Shown here: piece by piece, positions 99 through 8,078 of the stretch
Layout: each line of letters opens with the position of its first letter
How positions within the stretch are numbered: position 1 is the stretch's first letter
Notes under the pieces: generated by a model
Seen by the model: the letters and a program-made list of their open reading frames with translations, nothing else
Databases searched by the model: none
What the model was told of the DNA's origin: nothing
Assembly (NCBI GenBank): GCA_028065725.1
Contig: JAPTVL010000061.1
Span: 1-8,078 of the forward strand
From: Betaproteobacteria bacterium
GTDB lineage: Bacteria; Pseudomonadota; Gammaproteobacteria; Burkholderiales; Rhodocyclaceae
Direction: 5' to 3'
DNA length: 8,078 nucleotides
Program-made: the position numbers and the translations under genes

Positions 99-1670
99 GT
101 GAGCTTGCACGCAGTCATGCGCGGCAACGCGCAAACCCTCTTCGAAAACCTCGAAAACCTGTTCGATGGATTTTTCGGCGGCGCCGACAACCCCCTGCGC
201 CATCTGGGCGCGCTGGGCCTGTTCTGCCTCTGGATCCTGGTTGCCACCGGGCTCTATCTCTATACGGTGCTGGACACCAGCATCGAAGGCGTCTACCGCT
301 CGATCGGCGACCTCTCGCGCGAGCAGTGGTATCTCGGTGGCGTGCTGCGCAGCCTGCACCGCTACGCCGCCGACGCCTTCGTGCTGCTCATGCTGCTGCA
401 TCTGGTCCGCGAATGGGCCTACGGCCGCTACCACGGCTTCCGCCTGTATTCCTGGGTCACCGGCGTGCCGCTGATTTGGCTCGCCTACATCTCGGGCATC
501 GGCGGCTACTGGATCACCTGGGATCGCCTGGCGCAGTTCTCCGCCATCGCCACCACCGAACTGCTCGACTGGCTGCCGATTTTCAGCGAACCGAGCGCGC
601 GCAACTTCCTCGTCCCGGATTCGATCAGCGATCGCTTTTTCACGGTGCTGGTGTTCATCCACATCGGCGTACCGCTGATGCTGGTGCTCGGCCTCTGGGC
701 TCATGTCAATCGCATCAGCCGGGTGGATTACCTGCCGTCGCGCCGCGTCATGCTGGCCACCCTGGCCAGCTTTCTGTTACTGGCCACGATCAAGCCGGCA
801 CTGTCCGACGCGCCCGCCGACCTGGCCCTGGTGCCGGCCGAGATCCGCCTCGACTGGTTCATGATGTTCATCCATCCGCTGACCGACATCAGCTCGCCGG
901 CCGCGATGTGGACGCTGATCTTCGGCGCCACGATCCTGCTTTTCGTCCTGCCCTTCCTGCCCCACCCGCAGGTGCGACCGGTCGCCGTGGTCGACGCCGC
1001 CAACTGCAACGGCTGCAGCCGCTGCCACGTCGATTGCCCCTACGAAGCGATCACCATGGCGCCGCATCCGTACAAGGCAAATCACAAAATCGCCATCGTC
1101 GATGCCGACCACTGTGCCGGCTGCGGCATCTGTGCCGGTGCCTGTCCGTCCTCGACGCCGTTCCGCAGCCAGGAAAAACTGGTGACCGGCATCGACATGC
1201 CGCAGCAGCCGGTCGACGTCATGCGTCAGCAGCTCGAAGCGAAGGTGGCGCAGTTAACCGGCAGCACCCGACTGGTGGTCTTCGGCTGCGACCAGGGCGC
1301 AGCCGTCGGCGCGCTCGCAGCAGCCGACACCGCCACGCTGAGCCTGATCTGCACCGGCATGCTGCCGCCCTCCTTCATCGAATACGCGCTGCGCAGCGGC
1401 GTCGATGGCATCGTCGTCACCGGCTGCCGCGACGGCGGCTGCGATTTCCGCCTCGGCATGGAATGGACGCGCGAGCGCCTGGCACGGCGGCGCGAACCCC
1501 ACCTGCGCCAGCTGGTACCCCTCGACCGCCTGCATGTGGTGGCCGCATCGCGCAGCGAAGGCAGGCAGCTTGCCGCCGCCGTCAAGGAATTCAGAACCCG
1601 ACTCGAAAACGAATCCAGCGTAAGCACTCGGCCGCCCGACTACTCCAGGAGAAAAATCCATCATGGCTAA
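99..1670 (+). CDS. Cytochrome b - 2x[4Fe-4S] ferredoxin - MvhD-type fusion protein
   Basis: A 523-residue membrane electron-transfer protein. Residues 1-290 form a cytochrome b/b6-type domain with about six or seven hydrophobic segments. H87/H101 and H188/H202 each show the His-x13-His spacing that ligates two b hemes. P246-F254 ends in LDWF, at the place of the PEWY quinol-site motif. Residues 303-350 hold two C-x2-C-x2-C-x3-C-P motifs (C303/306/309/313 and C339/342/345/349) for two [4Fe-4S] clusters. Residues 391-480 resemble the MvhD/FlpD hydrogenase iron-sulfur subunit, with C397, C418, C443 and C448. In methanogens MvhD passes electrons to HdrA. The likely role is electron transfer between the quinone pool and a soluble low-potential partner; direction and partner are unknown. 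The GTG start is chosen because GGAAT lies nine bases upstream; ATG at 117 is the alternative. The frame is open to the window edge but has no earlier start codon. It overlaps the next gene by 8 bp. Assignment of the domains is firm, the physiological reaction is not. Confidence 0.93.
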   Translation: MSLHAVMRGNAQTLFENLENLFDGFFGGADNPLRHLGALGLFCLWILVATGLYLYTVLDTSIEGVYRSIGDLSREQWYLGGVLRSLHRYAADAFVLLMLLHLVREWAYGRYHGFRLYSWVTGVPLIWLAYISGIGGYWITWDRLAQFSAIATTELLDWLPIFSEPSARNFLVPDSISDRFFTVLVFIHIGVPLMLVLGLWAHVNRISRVDYLPSRRVMLATLASFLLLATIKPALSDAPADLALVPAEIRLDWFMMFIHPLTDISSPAAMWTLIFGATILLFVLPFLPHPQVRPVAVVDAANCNGCSRCHVDCPYEAITMAPHPYKANHKIAIVDADHCAGCGICAGACPSSTPFRSQEKLVTGIDMPQQPVDVMRQQLEAKVAQLTGSTRLVVFGCDQGAAVGALAAADTATLSLICTGMLPPSFIEYALRSGVDGIVVTGCRDGGCDFRLGMEWTRERLARRREPHLRQLVPLDRLHVVAASRSEGRQLAAAVKEFRTRLENESSVSTRPPDYSRRKIHHG

Positions 1671-2178
1671 ACCCGCCGCCATAGTCGGACAGGTAATTCT
1701 GTACGGCGCCTTTGCCGCCTTCATTGGCTACTTTTCCACGGCGCCGACCTACAAGCAGATTGCGGACGACGTCGCCCTGATCAAGCTGTCGATGAGCCAC
1801 CTCGGCGGCCGCGAATGCCGCAAGCGGACGCCCGAGGAACTGGCCAAGCTGCCGCCCAACATGCGCGCGCCGCTGGATTGCCCGCGCGGACGGTCCGACA
1901 TCAAGCTGCAACTCGAACTCGACGGCAAGCCGATGTTCGAGACCGTGATGCATCCGACCGGACTTTCCAAGGACGGCGTCTCCACCGTCTACAAGCGCTT
2001 CGAGGTGAAGGCCGGCACCTACCAGTTGGCAGTAAAGATGAACGACAACCTGGTCATCAATCGCGACTTCAATTTCGTCAAGGAGGCGCAAGTCACGCTG
2101 AAGCCGGCGCAGATTCTGGTGATCGACTTCAATCCGGACAAGGGCGGGCTGTTCTTCCAGTCGGCCGACGCGAAATGA
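1663..2178 (+). CDS. Small membrane-anchored protein of the cytochrome b operon, function unknown
   Basis: A 171-residue protein that I do not recognise. Residues 6-25 are a single hydrophobic segment, followed by a polar domain with alternating beta-type stretches (residues 78-158) and two cysteines, C52 and C73, that could form a disulfide if the domain faces the periplasm. There is no lipobox and no heme- or metal-binding motif. The start is well supported: AGGAGA lies ten bases before the ATG, and the ATG sits inside the stop region of the preceding gene (8-bp overlap), which implies translational coupling. Its place between two paralogous cytochrome b fusions suggests an accessory or small structural subunit of a complex containing one or both of them; this is inference from position only. 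Confidence 0.9.
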   Translation: MAKPAAIVGQVILYGAFAAFIGYFSTAPTYKQIADDVALIKLSMSHLGGRECRKRTPEELAKLPPNMRAPLDCPRGRSDIKLQLELDGKPMFETVMHPTGLSKDGVSTVYKRFEVKAGTYQLAVKMNDNLVINRDFNFVKEAQVTLKPAQILVIDFNPDKGGLFFQSADAK

Positions 2179-2221
2179 ACCCCATCACGACACGCCCCAA
2201 ATTTCTGCGCGGATAACGACC

Positions 2222-4135
2222 ATGCTGACTCTCCTGCAAAAACTCGTGCGCTGGTTCTTCATGCGCGCGGAGAACCTGTTCAACGTCGCCTTCGGCGAGA
2301 AGCTGAACCCCTTCTACCACCTGGGCACCATCAGCTTCTGGCAGTTCTGGCTGCTGATCGGCACCGGCCTCTACCTCTACATCTTCGCCGATACCGCGGT
2401 GCATGACGCCTACGAATCAGTCGAGCGCATCACCCATGACCAGTGGTGGGCGGGCGGCATCATGCGCAGCATCCATCGCTACGCCACCGACGGCATGATC
2501 CTGACCATGCTGCTGCACATGCTGCGGCACTTCGCCTACGACCGCTACCGCGGCTTCCGCTGGTTCTCCTGGGCCACCGGCGTCGCCCTGATCTGGCTGA
2601 TCTACATCTCCGGCCTCAACGGCTTCATGCTGGTGTGGGACAAGCTGGCGCAATTCGTCGTCGTCGCCACTGCCGAATGGTTCGATGTGCTGCCGATGTT
2701 CAACGGCACGCTGATCCGCAATTTCATCTACCAGGACAACGTCACCAGCCGCTTGTTCACCCTGCTCGCCTTCATCCACCTCGGCGCGCCGCTGATCGCC
2801 GGCGTCATCGCCTGGGTCCATGTGCAGCGCGTGCCGCGCGCCCACGTCAATCCGCCACGCCCTTTCGCCATCGCCTTCACCGCGATGTTCGTCGTGCTCG
2901 CCTTGGTCAAGCCGGTGGTCAGCCAGGGCGGCGAAGCCGACATGCTGGTAGTGCCGACCAACATCGCCTTCGACTGGTTCCAGATGCCGGTGCTGGCGCT
3001 GGTCTATGTGGTCAATCCGCTCTATCTCTGGTTCGGCGTCCTCGGCTTGTCGCTGCTGCTGTTCCTCGCCCCCTGGCTGCCGCCCAAGCGCATGGGCGCG
3101 GGCAAGGCCGAAGCCACGGTGACCTTCCACCCGGACCACCGCGCGGTCGCCATCCGCTTTGACGAGACCCTGCTCGATGCCGGCCTGCGCCAGGACATCA
3201 ACCTGCCCTACGAATGCCGCAACGGCGGCTGCGGTCATTGCAAATGTACGGTGCGCAGCGGCAATGTCGATCCCGGGCTGTACCAGCCCAGCGCGCTGTC
3301 GGCCGAGGAACTCGCGGCGGGCAAGGTGCTGCTGTGCTGCGCCACGGCGCTCGGCGACGTCGAAATCGAATACGAGGCTTCGTCGAGGCCGGTCGCCATC
3401 CGCCGCTACACGGCCCATGTGGCAAAGCTGGAGAAGCTGACCCACGACGTCATGCGCGTCATGCTCAAGCTGCCCGAGGGTCAGCAGATTCCCTTCAAGG
3501 CCGGCCAGTACATCAACATCATCCTCGACAACGACCAGCGCCGCGCCTTCTCCTTTGCCAATCCGCCGCACCAGTCCGACCTGATCGAGCTGCAGATCCG
3601 CCTGATGCCGGGCGGCCTCTACACCACCTACGTCTTCGAGCAGATGAAGGAAGGCGATGCGGTCAGGTTCGAAGGCCCGCTCGGCGACTTCTCGCTGCGC
3701 GAATCGGAGCGTCCGATCGTCTTCGTCGCCGGCGCCACCGGCTTCGCACCGGTCAAGAGCATGGTCGAGGATGCCTTCCGGCGCGGCCTCAAGCGGCCGA
3801 TCTACCTCTACTGGGGCGTGCGCCGCCTGGCCGACCTCTACCTGCCCGATCTGCCGGCGAGCTGGGCGCGCGAAAACCAGAACTTCCATTTCATTCCGGT
3901 GCTGTCGGACGCCGCGCCCGAGGACCACTGGAGCGGCCGCACGGGCCTGGTGCATGAAGCCATCCTGGAGGACTTCCCCGACCTCAAGGGACACGAAATC
4001 TACGCCTGCGGCTCGGTGAAAATGGTCGAGGCCATCTTCCCGCAGCTGAAGAACCAGGGCGCCGAAGAAGGCATGTGCTTCTCCGACGCCTTCACCATCT
4101 CGGCGCGTTCGATGGCGTTCCAGCCCAAGGCTTAG
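2222..4135 (+). CDS. Cytochrome b - [2Fe-2S] ferredoxin - FAD/NAD(P) reductase fusion protein
   Basis: A 637-residue, three-module membrane oxidoreductase. Residues 1-290 are a cytochrome b/b6-type domain clearly paralogous to that of the first gene of the operon, with heme ligands H85/H99 and H186/H200 (His-x13-His twice) and a PEWY-like FDWF at 250-253. Residues 297-385 are a plant-type ferredoxin with C332, C337, C340 and, in LLCC, C372. Residues 390-637 are a ferredoxin-NADP reductase-like unit: RAFS (441-444) for flavin, GATGFAP (504-510) for pyridine nucleotide, and YACGS (594-598) with a C-terminal GMCF. The expected reaction is electron exchange between quinol and NAD(P)H via hemes, [2Fe-2S] and FAD. 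From memory, a cytochrome b/b6 fused to NAD(P)/flavin domains was proposed in the Accumulibacter metagenome as a way to pass quinol electrons to NAD(P)+ without oxygen; this protein has that layout. It starts 43 bases after gene 2, behind a modest GGAT ribosome site, probably on the same transcript. NAD versus NADP preference cannot be read. Confidence 0.93.
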   Translation: MLTLLQKLVRWFFMRAENLFNVAFGEKLNPFYHLGTISFWQFWLLIGTGLYLYIFADTAVHDAYESVERITHDQWWAGGIMRSIHRYATDGMILTMLLHMLRHFAYDRYRGFRWFSWATGVALIWLIYISGLNGFMLVWDKLAQFVVVATAEWFDVLPMFNGTLIRNFIYQDNVTSRLFTLLAFIHLGAPLIAGVIAWVHVQRVPRAHVNPPRPFAIAFTAMFVVLALVKPVVSQGGEADMLVVPTNIAFDWFQMPVLALVYVVNPLYLWFGVLGLSLLLFLAPWLPPKRMGAGKAEATVTFHPDHRAVAIRFDETLLDAGLRQDINLPYECRNGGCGHCKCTVRSGNVDPGLYQPSALSAEELAAGKVLLCCATALGDVEIEYEASSRPVAIRRYTAHVAKLEKLTHDVMRVMLKLPEGQQIPFKAGQYINIILDNDQRRAFSFANPPHQSDLIELQIRLMPGGLYTTYVFEQMKEGDAVRFEGPLGDFSLRESERPIVFVAGATGFAPVKSMVEDAFRRGLKRPIYLYWGVRRLADLYLPDLPASWARENQNFHFIPVLSDAAPEDHWSGRTGLVHEAILEDFPDLKGHEIYACGSVKMVEAIFPQLKNQGAEEGMCFSDAFTISARSMAFQPKA

Positions 4136-4198: not shown

Positions 4199-5110
4199 TC
4201 ACGGCTCGATCGCCCGCGTGATGTCCACACCCGGCAGCACCCTTGCCACCACATCGCGCAACTGACTGGCCGCGGATTCGGCGATGGCAGCACCCGGATG
4301 GCGCACATGGGGCGTGCGCAGTAGGCCGCGCATGCGCAGCAATTCCTTGCGCACAGCCACGCCGGGCTGCTGTTCGAAGACGATCAGCGGCAGGTATCTG
4401 GCATAGAGGCGGAAACTCTCGGCGTGATCCCCGGCCTGCGCGGCACGGTTGATCGCCATCAGCACCTCGGGAAAGGCAAAGCCGGTATTGAAGCCGTCGG
4501 CCCCGGCCAGCAAATCGAAGTAGCCGTACAAGGCACCCAGACCGGTGAGGATGGGCACGCGACGCTCGCCCATGCCCTGCTTCAGCCCGGCGACGCGCAC
4601 CGGCGTCGGCAGCCCCTCTTCCTTGATGCAGGCGATCGCCGGGATTTCCGCCACCAGGCGCAACAACAGGGGCAGCGACATGTGCACCTGGGTCGAGGCC
4701 GGGTGGTCCTGGGCCACGATGGGCAGCAGCCCGGCGGCGGCGACCTTCTGGAAATAGTCGAAGACGCGGCCCTCGTTGGGCACCGGCTCGGCCGATGGCG
4801 CGATCATCACCGCATCGGCGCCGAGTTCCTGCGCCATCCGGCACAGGCCGATGGTGGCTTCCGTGCCGGCATGGCTGGCGCCGACGATGACCCGGGTGCG
4901 GCCGCCGGCAGCGGCGACAGCCTGTGCGATCAGGGCTTCGCGCTCGCGGTCGAGCATGCGATTGGATTCGCCGAGCACCCCCAGCACGGTCACGCCGTCA
5001 ACGCCGAGATCGGCATTGAAGCGCACCATGCGATCGAAGGATTCGAGATCGAGACTGCCGTCCGCGTTGAAGGGAGTCGCCAGTATCGGAAACACGCCGC
5101 TGAAATTCAT
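4199..5110 (-). CDS. DapA/NanA-superfamily Schiff-base aldolase/lyase, substrate unknown
   Basis: A 303-residue cytoplasmic (beta/alpha)8 enzyme of the dihydrodipicolinate synthase / N-acetylneuraminate lyase superfamily. It opens with the usual GVFPILATPF strand, and K163 in CIKEE is at the place of the Schiff-base lysine. It is probably not DapA: the GTTGE loop reads GVLGE (44-48), replacing the paired threonines, and the YNVP tyrosine position reads QDHP (134-137). A lyase, aldolase or dehydratase acting on a 2-oxo acid is the reasonable general call. The start is placed at 5110 because GAGG lies six bases upstream and the family N-terminus begins there; the frame extends upstream to 5227 without family-like sequence. 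It lies 120 bp behind the small gene ending at 5231, with a 21-bp palindrome in the gap, so it may have its own regulated promoter. Confidence 0.88.
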   Translation of the reverse strand: MNFSGVFPILATPFNADGSLDLESFDRMVRFNADLGVDGVTVLGVLGESNRMLDREREALIAQAVAAAGGRTRVIVGASHAGTEATIGLCRMAQELGADAVMIAPSAEPVPNEGRVFDYFQKVAAAGLLPIVAQDHPASTQVHMSLPLLLRLVAEIPAIACIKEEGLPTPVRVAGLKQGMGERRVPILTGLGALYGYFDLLAGADGFNTGFAFPEVLMAINRAAQAGDHAESFRLYARYLPLIVFEQQPGVAVRKELLRMRGLLRTPHVRHPGAAIAESAASQLRDVVARVLPGVDITRAIEP

Positions 5111-5167
5111 GGATACCTCGTCGGGAAATGAAACCATGGCGTCAGGCCAACGCTTCAGCCACGCGCC

Positions 5168-5188
5168 AGGCTTGATGCATGCAAGCCT
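5168..5188. promoter_or_regulatory. 21-bp palindrome upstream of the aldolase gene, possible operator
   Basis: AGGCTTG-ATGCATG-CAAGCCT is an inverted repeat with perfect 7-bp arms and a 7-nt centre that itself contains the palindrome ATGCAT. It lies 58-78 bases upstream of the minus-strand start at 5110. There is no T-tract next to it, which argues against a terminator for the preceding gene. A dimeric repressor or activator site for the aldolase gene is the simplest reading, but no regulator gene is next to it in the window. Confidence 0.4.
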
Positions 5189-5230
5189 ACCATCGGCGCC
5201 GGCCCGGCGGCGCGGTACCGGAAGCACCGC

Positions 5231-5557
5231 TCAGCCGAAAATGACGATTTTCAGCCTGGCGAATCGGCCGAGGCCGGCCCACCAGAGCAAACCCCTCCGG
5301 CGGAATTCGACCCCGGCCGCCGTCAGCGCGAGTATTCGCACGCCCAGCTCGGTCGCTCCTGTGTCGGCAACGTATCCCAATTGCATCAGCCAGCGCGCAA
5401 TGGCCGGCTGCACGGGATTCCTGTCGATGCTCCAGCGCGCGCCAAAACCATCCGCCGCACCGCTCAGCATCAGCATCGGCACATTGCCGCCCATCAGCCG
5501 CAGCACTTGCAGCGTTTCGGCGCGATTGGGAATCGACGAGTAATCCGCAGCATCCAT
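5231..5557 (-). CDS. Small conserved-looking protein with winged-helix-like C-terminus, unknown
   Basis: A 108-residue protein from the ATG at 5557, opening with [13 protein letters not shown] do not recognise it with a named function. Residues 10-45 are a hydrophobic-rich segment ([16 protein letters not shown]); residues 53-88 alternate in a helix-turn-helix-like way ([10 protein letters not shown]) and then [10 protein letters not shown], a strand-turn like the wing of MarR-type winged-helix proteins. The C-terminus ends in KIVIFG. It has no signal peptide or metal motif. The reading frame stays open to an ATG at 5653 (140 residues), but the extra part covers a GC-rich hairpin at 5579-5596 and looks non-coding, so the shorter start is preferred. 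Neither start has a good Shine-Dalgarno sequence. A small DNA-binding or adaptor role is possible but unproven. Confidence 0.65.
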
Positions 5558-5578
5558 GATCGGTTCGATTATGACCCT

Positions 5579-5596
5579 TCCGGCCACGAGGCCGGA
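5579..5596. repeat. GC-rich hairpin in the leader of the small minus-strand gene
   Basis: TCCGGCC-ACGA-GGCCGGA forms a perfect 7-bp stem with a 4-nt loop, about 22 bases upstream of the preferred minus-strand start at 5557. It has no T-tract. It could shape the mRNA leader; if the longer 5653 start is right it would lie inside the coding region. Confidence 0.4.
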
Positions 5597-5763
5597 CGGG
5601 CCGGCACCAGCCTGCCGAAGATTTATGTTGCGTGTTTGCCCAATACAGTGCACAGTGCGCGCCAGCGAGCTTCAAGTAGTGACGTTTTGTCTGGTCTTCA
5701 GTACCCGCTTCCCAGCGGTCTCTTTCCCTTCATCACCCCGCCGTCTTGATGTTCGTCCCACCC

Positions 5764-5789
5764 AGGGGCGCGCCCCTTTGTTTTTTTTT
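5764..5789 (+). terminator. Terminator-like hairpin plus U-tract in the cold-shock gene leader
   Basis: AGGGG-CGCG-CCCCT (5764-5777) is a short, very GC-rich stem within the 12-bp palindrome GGGGCGCGCCCC, followed by TTG and nine consecutive T at 5781-5789. This is the layout of a factor-independent terminator on the + strand. It ends only 15 bases before the cold-shock ATG at 5805, and there is no + strand gene between 4136 and 5764 for it to terminate. It may be a leader attenuator, or the 3' end of a small RNA from the 5640-5764 region. I see no convincing promoter for it in 5654-5763, which otherwise contains only a tandem CAGTGCA/CAGTGCG near 5645-5658. Confidence 0.6.
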
Positions 5790-5804
5790 CAGGATATTCA
5801 AGAC

Positions 5805-6011
5805 ATGGCATCAGGTACTGTGAAGTGGTTCAACGACTCCAAAGGCTTCGGTTTCATCACCCCGGAAAACGGCGGCGATGATCTGTTCGCGCATTTTTCC
5901 GCCATCCAGAGCGCGGGTTTCAAGACCCTCAAGGAAGGTCAGCGCGTCAGCTTCGACATCACTACCGGCCCCAAGGGCCAGCAGGCGTCGAACATTCGCG
6001 ACGCGGGTTGA
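5805..6011 (+). CDS. cspA: Cold-shock protein (CspA family)
   Basis: A 68-residue single OB-fold (cold-shock domain) protein, the normal length. It shows the family opening [12 protein letters not shown]1 as KGFGFI (residues 13-18) and RNP2 as DLFAHF (about residues 26-31), the aromatic nucleic-acid-binding surface. Such proteins bind single-stranded RNA/DNA, melt hairpins and can act as transcription antiterminators. AGGAT ten bases upstream gives the start. The name cspA is generic, since the paralogue cannot be told from sequence alone. The gene sits between a terminator-like leader hairpin and a strong terminator at 6062-6093, so it is probably its own short transcript. Confidence 0.95.
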
Positions 6012-6061
6012 GCGGCGCTCCGGCATGACCCTGGTCGCGCCGGAGGCACCGTCTCTCCCGG

Positions 6062-6093
6062 AAAAGCCCGGCACTGCCGGGCTTTTTCTTTTT
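6062..6093. terminator. Strong factor-independent terminator between cold-shock gene and infA
   Basis: AAAAGCCCGGC-ACT-GCCGGGCTTTT pairs over 11 bp with a 3-nt loop and is followed by TTTTTCTTTTT on the + strand, ending the cold-shock transcript. On the minus strand the same stem is followed by four T, so it may also stop the convergent transcript of the oxidase gene after it has crossed infA. Confidence 0.88.
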
Positions 6094-6117
6094 CCGAACA
6101 CAGCTGGAGACCGCAAC

Positions 6118-6375
6118 GTGGCCAAGGAAGAACTCATCGAAATGAGCGGCGTAGTCACGGAAGTGCTGCCCGACTCGCGCTATCGCGTCACGCTCGACAA
6201 CGGCCACATCCTGGTCGCCTACACGGCGGGCAAGATGCGCCTGCATCACATCCGCATCATCGCGGGCGACAAGGTCACGCTCGAAATCTCGCCCTACGAC
6301 CTTTCAAAGGGCCGCATCAACTTCCGTCACATCGAAGGCCGCGCGGCGACGCCCCGACAGCAACACCGGCACTGA
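6118..6375 (+). CDS. infA: Translation initiation factor IF-1
   Basis: An 85-residue IF-1. Residues 1-72 follow the E. coli protein closely ([11 protein letters not shown] opening, [22 protein letters not shown], then [10 protein letters not shown]), forming one OB fold that binds the ribosomal A site of the 30S subunit during initiation. A 13-residue basic tail rich in R, Q and H extends beyond the usual 72 residues, as in the longer IF-1 copies I recall from beta-proteobacteria. The start is GTG at 6118, with GGAG eight bases upstream; no ATG alternative precedes it. It lies 25 bases after the terminator of the cold-shock gene, leaving little room for a promoter, so partial readthrough may feed it. 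Its stop is only three bases from the stop of the convergent oxidase gene. Confidence 0.96.
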
Positions 6376-6378
6376 GCC

Positions 6379-7710
6379 TCAGGCCCGGCGGCGCAGCATC
6401 AGCTTGAGGCAGACCAGGACGAACATGATGCCGCCGATCACGGCGATCAGGCCGCCCGCGCCCATCATGCCCATGCCGATTTTCTGCGGCAGCGAAACCA
6501 GCGCCTGCTCGGCACCGGCCACCTTGCGCTGCACGCCGTAGCCGCCCGACCAGGCCAGGCCGAGGATGTGGATCAACTGGCCGCCGCCATACACATAGGG
6601 CTGCCAGCGCGCCATGCGCCCCTCCACTTCGCCGAAGCCCAGTTGCGGCAGCAGCACATAGGCCAGGCCCATGAAGGCCAGCGTCACGCCCACCGTGGAG
6701 CCGTGATAGTGCGCCGGGATCACCACATTCACGCCCTGGATCATGTAGGCCAGCACGCCGCCCACGGCGAACAGCGAGAAGGACGCGATGAAGGCCGACT
6801 TGGCCGCACCGGACACCACCTTGCGCGTCGCCCACAGGCTGAGCAAGCCGACCAGGATCAGCGGCGCCATGTAGGGATGGCCCCAAATCATCAGCTTGGC
6901 AAACAGCTCCATGTGCGCCAGTTCGCCGACCGGTAGCGTGAAGTAGATCGCCGGCACCACCAGCAGGGGCAATGCCGCGATCCAGAACATGGCCGACATC
7001 GCGCGTGGCGCGGTCGCCGGGGGCTGCCCGAGATGGTCGGCAATCCACAGCCAGGCCACCACCATCAGCAGCGCATGCTGGAACTGCAGGGTATGACCGC
7101 CACCCCAGAATAGCACTTCGAAATAGATTTTTTCCTCGATCCGCGGCACCGCGATCCAGGACCAGACGAAGGCGGTCAGCGCGAAAAAGGCCGCCACCGC
7201 GCCGAGGAAGGCGCCGAGCTGCAGCGGCGAACCAAAGGCCGGACGCGGCCAGGTGGTGAGCAGCGCACGCAGCACCGCCAGCCCGAAGCCCGCGCCGCAG
7301 ATCCACAGCGAAGCGTAGAACACCGGCTGCTGCAGCACCGGGATGTAGTTGTTGAGCACCGGGTCGGCGCCCGGCAGGAAGGGTGATACCGTCATCACTG
7401 CGGTGCCCAGCGCCGCCAGCGCGAAACCGCACCAACCGAGCCAGGCAAAGCCGCCGCTGCCCAGCGCGCTCCAGATCACCGCGGCAAAAGCCATGAACCA
7501 GATCGCCACCGAGAGGTCGACATGGACTACCAGCGCGGCGCGGAAAAAATCCTTCAGCGGGAACACATCCTGGATTCCCGGCGTGCGCGAGAGCACCAGC
7601 AAAATGGCCAGCAATCCGGAACCGATGAGTGCCATCAGCCCCAGCCACAACCATGCCCTGGCAAGGGCTTTTGATCCCTCGCCGGAAACCGTAACGATAT
7701 GCGAATTCAC
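6379..7710 (-). CDS. Heme-copper oxidase superfamily subunit I-like protein (atypical active site)
   Basis: A 443-residue integral membrane protein with about twelve hydrophobic helices, close in length to NorB/CcoN-type subunits. Family marks in order: H63 in VVHVDLSV (helix II, low-spin heme), H206 in FWGGGH (helix VI, copper/FeB site), H278 in IWGHPYM (helix VII) and H334/H336 in AHYHG (helix X, high- and low-spin heme ligands). The helix VII pair that should read HH reads H278-P279, and the position of the helix VI cross-linked tyrosine (four after H206) is F210. This fits a NOR-like or otherwise non-standard member better than a normal O2-reducing oxidase; no subunit II or III gene is adjacent. 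GTG at 7710 is chosen as start because GGAG lies six bases upstream; the frame beyond it to 7935 runs antisense into the SCO gene. The divergent SCO gene supports a respiratory, metal-dependent role. Specific reaction uncertain. Confidence 0.85.
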   Translation of the reverse strand: MNSHIVTVSGEGSKALARAWLWLGLMALIGSGLLAILLVLSRTPGIQDVFPLKDFFRAALVVHVDLSVAIWFMAFAAVIWSALGSGGFAWLGWCGFALAALGTAVMTVSPFLPGADPVLNNYIPVLQQPVFYASLWICGAGFGLAVLRALLTTWPRPAFGSPLQLGAFLGAVAAFFALTAFVWSWIAVPRIEEKIYFEVLFWGGGHTLQFQHALLMVVAWLWIADHLGQPPATAPRAMSAMFWIAALPLLVVPAIYFTLPVGELAHMELFAKLMIWGHPYMAPLILVGLLSLWATRKVVSGAAKSAFIASFSLFAVGGVLAYMIQGVNVVIPAHYHGSTVGVTLAFMGLAYVLLPQLGFGEVEGRMARWQPYVYGGGQLIHILGLAWSGGYGVQRKVAGAEQALVSLPQKIGMGMMGAGGLIAVIGGIMFVLVCLKLMLRRRA

Positions 7711-7733
7711 TATAGCTCCGCGAAAAATGCTCA

Positions 7734-7739
7734 AGTATA
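7734..7739 (-). promoter_or_regulatory. Probable -10 box of the oxidase gene
   Basis: Read on the minus strand, 7739-7734 is TATACT, five of six matches to TATAAT, which would place the start site near 7727 and give a leader of about 16 nt before the GTG at 7710. No convincing -35 hexamer is found at 16-18 bp, so an activator may be needed. The 96-bp region 7711-7806 must carry the divergent promoters of both neighbouring genes; TACACT at 7765-7770 is a weak candidate -10 for the SCO gene. Confidence 0.4.
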
Positions 7740-7806
7740 CGGCAATGGTTCGAGGCAAACGCGGTACACTGGCAAATGCATCGACTCTCGCCCGTTTTTC
7801 ATTCCC

Positions 7807-8078
7807 ATGAAGCTGCTTGCCACCCTGTTTTTCAGCCTCGCCCTGCTGCTCTCCGGATGCTCCGAACCGAAGCAGTTCGTTTCCACCGACCTGTCGATGG
7901 TCGACTGGGGCAAGGATTTCAGGCTTACCGATCACAACGGCCAGCCGCGCAGCCTGGGCGACTTCAAGGGCAAGGCGGTGGTCCTGTTCTTCGGCTACAC
8001 CCAGTGCCCCGATGTCTGCCCGACCACGCTATCCACCATGCGCGAGGCCATGACGCTGCTCGGCGACGATGCCAAACG
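7807..8078 (+). CDS. SCO1/SenC-type copper/thiol assembly lipoprotein, 3' end cut by the window
   Basis: The first 90 residues of a SCO-family protein running off the right edge. Residues 1-18 form a lipoprotein signal peptide with lipobox LSGC (acylated C18), so the mature protein is membrane-anchored and faces the periplasm. The thioredoxin-like fold begins after F38, and TQCPDVCP carries the copper- or disulfide-forming C67-x3-C71 pair. The conserved distal histidine lies beyond the window. SCO proteins deliver copper to, or reduce thiols of, cytochrome oxidase sites (CuA or CuB) in the periplasm. Divergent placement beside the heme-copper oxidase-like gene matches that job. No clear ribosome-binding site precedes the ATG; the start is set by the signal peptide. 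Confidence 0.92.
   Translation, partial: MKLLATLFFSLALLLSGCSEPKQFVSTDLSMVDWGKDFRLTDHNGQPRSLGDFKGKAVVLFFGYTQCPDVCPTTLSTMREAMTLLGDDAK

What the first reader, a model, noticed from the sequence alone, without database searches (positions are those of the whole stretch)
99..4135. Twin cytochrome b fusions with different electron-output modules in one operon
Two paralogous cytochrome b cores (aligned at LFDGFFGG/LFNVAFGE, the HRYA and FIH(I/L)GxPL heme regions and DRLAQF/DKLAQF) are fused to different redox tails: 2x[4Fe-4S]+MvhD in one, [2Fe-2S]+FAD/NAD(P) reductase in the other, with a small membrane protein between. The cores look like a duplication with module exchange. If the two form a heterodimer, a single quinol site system could split electrons between a low-potential (ferredoxin/HdrA-like) and a pyridine-nucleotide branch, in effect a membrane confurcating or bifurcating complex. 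The fusions are seen in sequence; the joint complex and the splitting are hypothesis.
Basis: partly seen in the sequence, partly recalled or inferred. Interest (0 to 1): 0.82.

Follow-up and report, generated by a model that had tools for sequence, protein, structure and literature searches.

The report
Twin cytochrome b pair beside NO reductase
Two related membrane cytochromes with different cytoplasmic electron-carrying tails turn up, in the genomes sampled, almost always together with an unusual predicted nitric oxide reductase, so they probably form its electron-handling module and might even harvest part of its energy to make reducing power.

Summary
ORF1 (99-1670) is a bc-type cytochrome b core + 2x[4Fe-4S] + MvhD; ORF3 (2222-4135) is a paralogous core + [2Fe-2S] + FAD/NAD(P) reductase; ORF2 lies between. 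In 248 genomes of one family 48 have both, 2 only ORF1, 1 only ORF3. Splitting is untested. The key lies outside the window: in relatives ORF1-3 follow cox2, a heme-copper subunit ('HCO1'), ctaB and SCO1. HCO1 has the Gln-for-Tyr active site printed for eNOR nitric oxide reductases and its subunit II a CuA motif; NirS lies in 21 of 131 stretches, 11 of them with HCO1. ORF1 and HCO1 share 48 family genomes (50 each) and 23 of a phylum sample (25 and 24), where ORF3 is mostly missing and 11 of the 23 have the two genes apart. So ORF1 + HCO1 is the core pair, ORF3 an add-on. Best reading: electron module of a NO reductase linking quinol and cytoplasmic NAD(P)/Fe-S carriers; direction unknown, quinol bifurcation possible. 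A cytochrome b/b6 of Accumulibacter was already proposed for anaerobic electron transport.

The parts
99..1670 (+). ORF1: cytochrome b core + 2x[4Fe-4S] + MvhD fusion, 523 aa
852..860 (+). D-W-F motif of ORF1 (residues 252-254), aligned with PVWY (Qo motif) of bc1 cytochrome b of related genomes
981..1154 (+). ORF1 2x[4Fe-4S] ferredoxin domain (residues 295-352), 8 conserved Cys
1332..1607 (+). ORF1 FlpD/MvhD domain (residues 412-503); conserved C418, C443, C448 here and C397 just before it
1663..2178 (+). ORF2: one membrane helix (4-26) + beta-sandwich, two conserved Cys (52, 73), no family
2222..4135 (+). ORF3: cytochrome b core + plant-type [2Fe-2S] + FAD/NAD(P) reductase fusion, 637 aa
2972..2980 (+). 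D-W-F motif of ORF3 (residues 251-253)
3152..3349 (+). ORF3 [2Fe-2S] domain (residues 311-376)
3416..4036 (+). ORF3 FAD- and NAD(P)-binding domains (residues 399-490 and 501-605)
6379..7935 (-). HCO2: heme-copper-oxidase-fold protein that keeps haem-type His but lacks the CuB His pair; its homolog lies inside the ORF1-ORF3 cluster in other clades (start codon unsure, part used for the model begins at 7710)
7699..8076 (+). SCO1/SenC gene beside HCO2, cut by the window end

Best explanation
ORF1-ORF2-ORF3 is the downstream half of a respiratory gene cluster whose other half (CuA subunit II, Gln-type heme-copper subunit I, haem O synthase, SCO1) is an eNOR-type nitric oxide reductase. ORF1 and ORF3 are bc-type cytochrome b cores (helices A-F, two b haems, a P-side Qo-like loop) without a Rieske/cytochrome c1 partner in the cluster; instead they carry cytoplasmic redox tails. 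They act as the membrane electron module of the NO reductase, joining the quinone pool, cytoplasmic carriers (NAD(P)H through ORF3, a ferredoxin- or Hdr-type partner through ORF1) and the P-side CuA. Shown: anatomy, conservation, gene order, co-occurrence. Inferred: NO reductase activity, membrane topology, joint complex, electron route. Committed route (about 0.35 on its own): quinol is oxidised at the Qo-like site, one electron goes to CuA and NO, the other through the b haems to the tails.
For: Gene order cox2-HCO1-ctaB-SCO1-ORF1-ORF2-ORF3; of 79 stretches 73 hold all three ORFs and 55 of these also HCO1. Family sample of 248: ORF1 50, HCO1 50, both 48; the two ORF1-only genomes, G020 and G112, match L026 and L045 by ORF3 coordinates, and there the contig ends in or just past SCO1/ctaB. 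Phylum sample of 349: ORF1 25, HCO1 24, both 23; of these 23, 12 have the genes within 6 kb, 2 at 14-19 kb, 9 on different contigs, so they are kept together also when apart. The same holds for G183, G225, G240 (other contig) and G081 (28 kb) in the family. HCO1: GHSSQQ, Gln at the ba3 Tyr position, at 97% or more of 57 rows, with CuB and haem His; HSTQQ in L117; paper table gives Q as the eNOR residue. Subunit II keeps CNExCGxxHHxM. NirS at 60% identity or more in 21 of 131 stretches. Conserved ligands and Qo-like motif.
Against: No activity, expression or complex data. Co-occurrence is not corrected for shared ancestry. Rieske of bc1 is over cut-off in 47 of 50 ORF1 genomes, so in most the cluster does not replace bc1. 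Ca. Nitricoxidivorans perseverans, which lacks bc1 and has the cluster, reduces NO with an expressed cNOR. 18 of 73 ORF1-3 stretches hold no HCO1, some cut by contig ends, some long Accumulibacter stretches; for five of these (L020, L025, L033, L037, L041, matched to G183, G225, G240, G081, G863) HCO1 was found elsewhere in the genome, the rest were not followed up one by one. Five ORF1 stretches with NirS have no HCO1 in the stretch (L114, L115, L119, L122, L123). HCO1 was not placed among known eNORs by a tree.
Confidence: 0.55

Rival explanations
1. Transmembrane wire, NOX-like: NAD(P)H (ORF3) and a low-potential Fe-S donor (ORF1) are oxidised in the cytoplasm and electrons cross through the b haems to the P side and CuA of the NO reductase, bypassing quinone; its job is NO removal, not energy saving.
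For: Dehydrogenase tail on a two-haem membrane domain; CuA partner in the same cluster; NirS neighbours mean NO is made nearby. The NOX likeness is recalled, not tested.
Against: A Qo-like acidic motif is kept in both paralogs, which a plain wire would not need; wasteful for NO/N2O at +1.173 V (value from PMC10390337).
Confidence: 0.25
2. Reverse electron transport as proposed for Accumulibacter: quinol reduces NAD(P)+ through the cytochrome b fusion, driven by membrane potential, to keep the TCA cycle turning without acceptor.
For: A paper on Accumulibacter says anaerobic electron transport is 'proposed possible' with 'cytochrome b/b6 oxidase', citing the 2006 metagenome paper; that this is the ORF3-type fusion, and the quinol to NAD(P)+ direction, are recalled (paper not held).
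Against: Does not explain why the fusions are kept with a Gln-type heme-copper subunit (48 family genomes) and with nir genes, nor ORF1 without ORF3. Electron flow from a P-side site to the N side builds, not uses, membrane potential (bc1 knowledge).
Confidence: 0.12
3. Two independent enzymes, each its own homodimer: ORF1 a quinone/Hdr-type oxidoreductase, ORF3 a NAD(P)H:quinone oxidoreductase, linked only by operon convenience.
For: ORF1-type alone in 21 of 25 positive phylum genomes; in two genomes, G709 (L104/L129) and G742 (L108), two ORF2 copies flank ORF1, one of them next to ORF3, as if each fusion had its own partner.
Against: Both kept in 48 of 51 family genomes with either; in two small genomes the pair is two ORF1-types in tandem, as if a pair were wanted.
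Confidence: 0.3

Closest known systems
eNOR nitric oxide reductase (B-family heme-copper, subunits I and II)
   Same: HCO1: Gln at the active-site Tyr position, CuB and haem His kept, cupredoxin subunit II directly upstream
   Different: The passages I read on eNOR mention no cytochrome b fusions with it; the paper I took for the main eNOR paper is not held
Cytochrome b of bc1/b6f complexes
   Same: Two bis-His haems, Qo-like acidic motif; best solved relative of the ORF1 core cytochrome b6 (6rqf, E 8.2e-15)
   Different: No Rieske or c1 found in the cluster, core ends after helix F (inference), tails on the N side (inference); ORF1 His35 sits at b6 Cys35 (haem cn site by recall)
HdrA2 C-terminal ferredoxin-MvhD half
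   Same: ORF1 295-507 matches positions 571-773 of 777 of HdrA2, E 2.1e-24, below the model's cut-off
   Different: The rest of HdrA is missing; joined to a cytochrome b
BenC / NqrF-type NAD(P)H reductases
   Same: ORF3 307-625, BenC model E 6.2e-63, below its cut-off
   Different: Joined to a cytochrome b core

Membership tests
eNOR-type NO reductase (HCO1, outside the window) | Gln at the position of the cross-linked Tyr | tested here: met
   At 97% or more of 57 aligned rows and in the further copies printed; residue per PMC8756737
eNOR-type NO reductase (HCO1, outside the window) | Cupredoxin subunit II next to subunit I | tested here: met
   cox2 with CNExCGxxHHxM motif upstream
eNOR-type NO reductase (HCO1, outside the window) | Falls inside the eNOR clade | not tested
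   No reference eNOR sequences were fetched
eNOR-type NO reductase (HCO1, outside the window) | Reduces NO to N2O | not testable with these tools
   NirS neighbours are indirect support only
bc1/b6f complex | Two bis-His b haems in the membrane core | tested here: met
   ORF1 H87/H101/H188/H202, ORF3 H85/H99/H186/H200 conserved
bc1/b6f complex | Rieske protein and c-type cytochrome partner in the same cluster | tested here: not met
   No such gene among those named in the cluster (not every neighbouring frame was scanned); Rieske genes of these genomes lie elsewhere where compared, e.g. G001 C22 and C19 against the cluster on C33
Electron-bifurcating complex | A two-electron site feeding one high- and one low-potential branch | not testable with these tools
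   Anatomy allows it; no redox data
Electron-bifurcating complex | Both fusions in one heterodimer | not tested
   Only single-chain prediction was on hand

The most novel reading that the evidence does not exclude
A quinol-bifurcating respiratory complex: a cytochrome b pair with a Qo-like site sends one electron of quinol to an eNOR-type NO reductase on the outside and the other, through the b haems and the Fe-S/flavin tails, to NAD(P)+ and ferredoxin-level acceptors inside, so that NO reduction pays for reducing power in autotrophic and PHA-storing Rhodocyclales.
Probability: 0.2. Interest if true: 0.9.

Novelty: new variant of a known kind. Interest (0 to 1): 0.62.

Why it matters
It ties an orphan pair of cytochrome b fusions, found in the phosphorus-removing bacterium Accumulibacter and in other Rhodocyclales, to a predicted NO reductase that may be hidden under the name ba3 oxidase. 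An organism said to lack NO reductase genes norBC, Ca. Desulfobacillus denitrificans, carries this predicted one (L058), which bears on N2O budgets. If the bifurcating reading holds, it would be a Q-cycle that makes NAD(P)H, a new way to recover the energy of NO reduction.

Tried and rejected

The cluster as a general replacement of bc1: rejected, Rieske is over the cut-off in 47 of 50 ORF1 genomes; G027, G236 and G152 show none. G027 has the contig length of P0202, Ca. Nitricoxidivorans perseverans (2704353), and agrees with the published absence of bc1.

HCO2 as a working oxidase: doubtful. It has the heme-copper fold (best Foldseek hit ba3 oxidase 3s8f, E 1.8e-7) and haem-type His, but no His pair where HCO1 has H278/H279.

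Literature: the listings showed no paper that I could tell to describe these fusions together with eNOR. The paper I took for the main eNOR paper and the 2006 Accumulibacter metagenome paper are not held, so this is no proof of novelty. Passages said nothing on the fusions.

Counts read by eye were typed into. In one search the HCO1 list lacked G093 and G040 (their HCO1 is within 6 kb). ORF3 fragments in G018 and a tail-less ORF3-type core in G021 were left out of the ORF3 count of 49. The 131 stretches overlap in part (L101 repeats L114, L102 repeats L115, and others without NirS repeat too), so 21 NirS stretches are 19 places, two of them (L112, L125) the source of the queries. Scripts missed the bc1 sequences through a wrong filter of mine; one search found them.
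Full report
What is there. ORF1 is a cytochrome b core with a 2x[4Fe-4S] and an MvhD domain; ORF3 is a second core with a plant-type [2Fe-2S] domain and a FAD/NAD(P) reductase; ORF2 sits between. The two cores are 40-42% identical in L001. Over 69 and 72 aligned rows the expected ligands are conserved at 98% or more: four haem His in each core, eight ferredoxin Cys and four MvhD Cys in ORF1, four [2Fe-2S] Cys in ORF3. A D-W-(F/Y) motif aligns with the PVWY Qo motif of the bc1 cytochrome b of related genomes; it is present in 108 of 120 MvhD-tailed and 90 of 94 other cores, most of the rest keeping D-W with another residue (overlapping stretches are counted twice). ORF1 His35 aligns with Cys35 of cytochrome b6, which by recall binds haem cn; three of the 15 fusion rows shown have Tyr there. 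The N-side place of the tails follows from known cytochrome b topology and is inference.

Where it comes from. No genome is held for the window. The nearest stretch is a Sulfuritalea MAG, L001, 98% identical in ORF3 and 91% in ORF1. Of 79 stretches found with ORF3, 73 hold ORF1, ORF2 and ORF3; the other six (L052, L054, L068, L075, L076, L077) are short on the upstream side: L068, L076 and L077 begin inside ORF3, L075 begins just before ORF2, L052 has 678 and L054 1,292 bases before ORF3.

The missing half. Upstream of ORF1 in relatives lie a CuA-type subunit II, a heme-copper subunit I (HCO1), haem o synthase and SCO1. HCO1 is nearest to Thermus ba3 oxidase among solved structures (E 2.7e-42), but where ba3 has a Tyr (237, the cross-linked one by recall) it has Gln: GHSSQQ stands in 97% or more of 57 rows and in the further copies whose site was printed, with HSTQQ in L117. 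A paper table gives Q as the mark of eNOR, and the text puts the cupredoxin subunit directly upstream (PMC8756737, passages read). A second paper says eNOR has been characterised and reduces NO (PMC11388526, passages and discussion read). Cytochrome cd1 nitrite reductase NirS, which makes NO, lies at 60% identity or more in 21 of 131 stretches (19 distinct places), 11 of them with HCO1 in the same stretch (L019, L056, L058, L059, L060, L065, L069, L112, L113, L124, L125); in L112, L124 and L125 it comes next after ORF2, apart from small frames. Any cd1-family gene is in 39 of 131. This makes HCO1 a NO reductase by inference, not by assay.

Co-occurrence. In 248 genomes of one family: ORF1 50, ORF3 49 full length, HCO1 50; ORF1 and ORF3 both 48; ORF1 and HCO1 both 48. 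ORF1 without ORF3: G040 and G093, which have HCO1; ORF3 without ORF1: G009, whose copy starts 682 bases into its contig. HCO1 without full ORF1: G018 (ORF1-like fragments) and G021 (an ORF3-type core only). Of the 48 ORF1-ORF3 pairs, 36 lie under 1 kb apart, 11 at 1-6 kb, one on two contigs. In 349 genomes drawn from the phylum: ORF1-type 25, HCO1 24, both 23, but ORF3-type in only two (G001, G590); of the 23, 12 have the genes within 6 kb, 2 at 14-19 kb and 9 on different contigs. In 300 genomes of the order 23 were positive, 17 with two matches. So ORF1 with HCO1 is the wider unit and ORF3 belongs to one part of it. Fisher p values (1e-32 to 1e-47) ignore kinship.

Variation. In the Desulfobacillus branch and in L084, L085, L092 and L130 a further heme-copper-fold protein, HCO2, lies between ORF2 and ORF3; in the window its homolog is the minus-strand gene at 6379-7935. 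It keeps haem-type His but lacks the CuB His pair in 52 rows, and folds as a heme-copper subunit (pLDDT 86.8). G709 and G742 have two ORF2 copies. Two small genomes, G386 and G438, have two ORF1-types in tandem. The tree puts MvhD-tailed and reductase-tailed cores in one group each, the latter with weak support and three long MvhD-tailed branches.

What it does. The safest statement is that ORF1, with ORF3 where present, handles electrons for an eNOR-type NO reductase. Three routes fit the anatomy: quinol oxidation with splitting between NO and the cytoplasmic tails; cytoplasmic donors feeding NO reduction across the membrane; quinol to NAD(P)+ driven by membrane potential. I lean to the first because both paralogs keep the acidic Qo-like motif, at about 0.35, and no data here decide it.

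Literature. One paper states that electron transport in the anaerobic phase of Accumulibacter is 'proposed possible' with 'cytochrome b/b6 oxidase', citing the 2006 metagenome paper (PMC6593511, passages read); that this is the ORF3-type fusion is my recall. A paper on Accumulibacter UW-LDO-IC reports a ba3 oxidase (cbaA, cbaB) in all Accumulibacter genomes it examined (PMC6446978, passages read); the genome of that strain (L041, G863) has one strong match to HCO1, with the Gln site, and one weak match which is HCO2, so the ba3 may be this enzyme. Ca. Desulfobacillus denitrificans is said to lack norBC (PMC8402940, passages read) but has HCO1, ORF1-3 and nirS in one 22 kb stretch, L058; the authors looked at cbb3 oxidases as a stand-in. 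In the NO-fed enrichment, MAG2 (JAOTRV) is listed with N2O reductase only (PMC10390337, passages read), yet L051, a Sulfuritalea contig of accession JAOTRV, holds the HCO1 cluster. Against my reading, the dominant organism there, which lacks bc1 and has the cluster, reduces NO with an expressed cNOR.

Verdict. Real, conserved and only partly described. Interest lies in the tie to a NO reductase and in a testable, unproven splitting mechanism.

Noticed in passing
window 6379-7935 (-): HCO2, a heme-copper-fold protein with haem-type His but no CuB His pair in 52 aligned rows, placed inside the cluster in other clades; function unknown.
   Followed up: partly
L058, L112, L124, L125: nirS sits near the eNOR-type cluster, with a nirF-like gene in L058, L124 and L125 and a NirDL-like gene in L125.
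   Followed up: yes
L117 7566-10994, L118 2371-5948: Two tandem ORF1-type fusions, both with MvhD tails, in genomes of 1.7-1.9 Mb.
   Followed up: partly
L082 6015-6941: An ORF3-type core without its reductase tail, in a cluster with cox2, HCO1, ctaB, SCO1 and ORF2 but no ORF1.
   Followed up: no
L137 (genome of Accumulibacter UW-LDO-IC): The only strong match to HCO1 there has the Gln site, so the published ba3 oxidase may be a NO reductase.
   Followed up: partly
window 5643-6375 (+): Cold-shock protein, terminator-like stem at 6060-6088, then translation initiation factor IF-1.
   Followed up: no
window 4199-5227 (-) and 5231-5653 (-): DapA-family gene (below the dapA cut-off) and a 140-aa protein with no family, the latter seen in four of 79 related stretches.
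   Followed up: no
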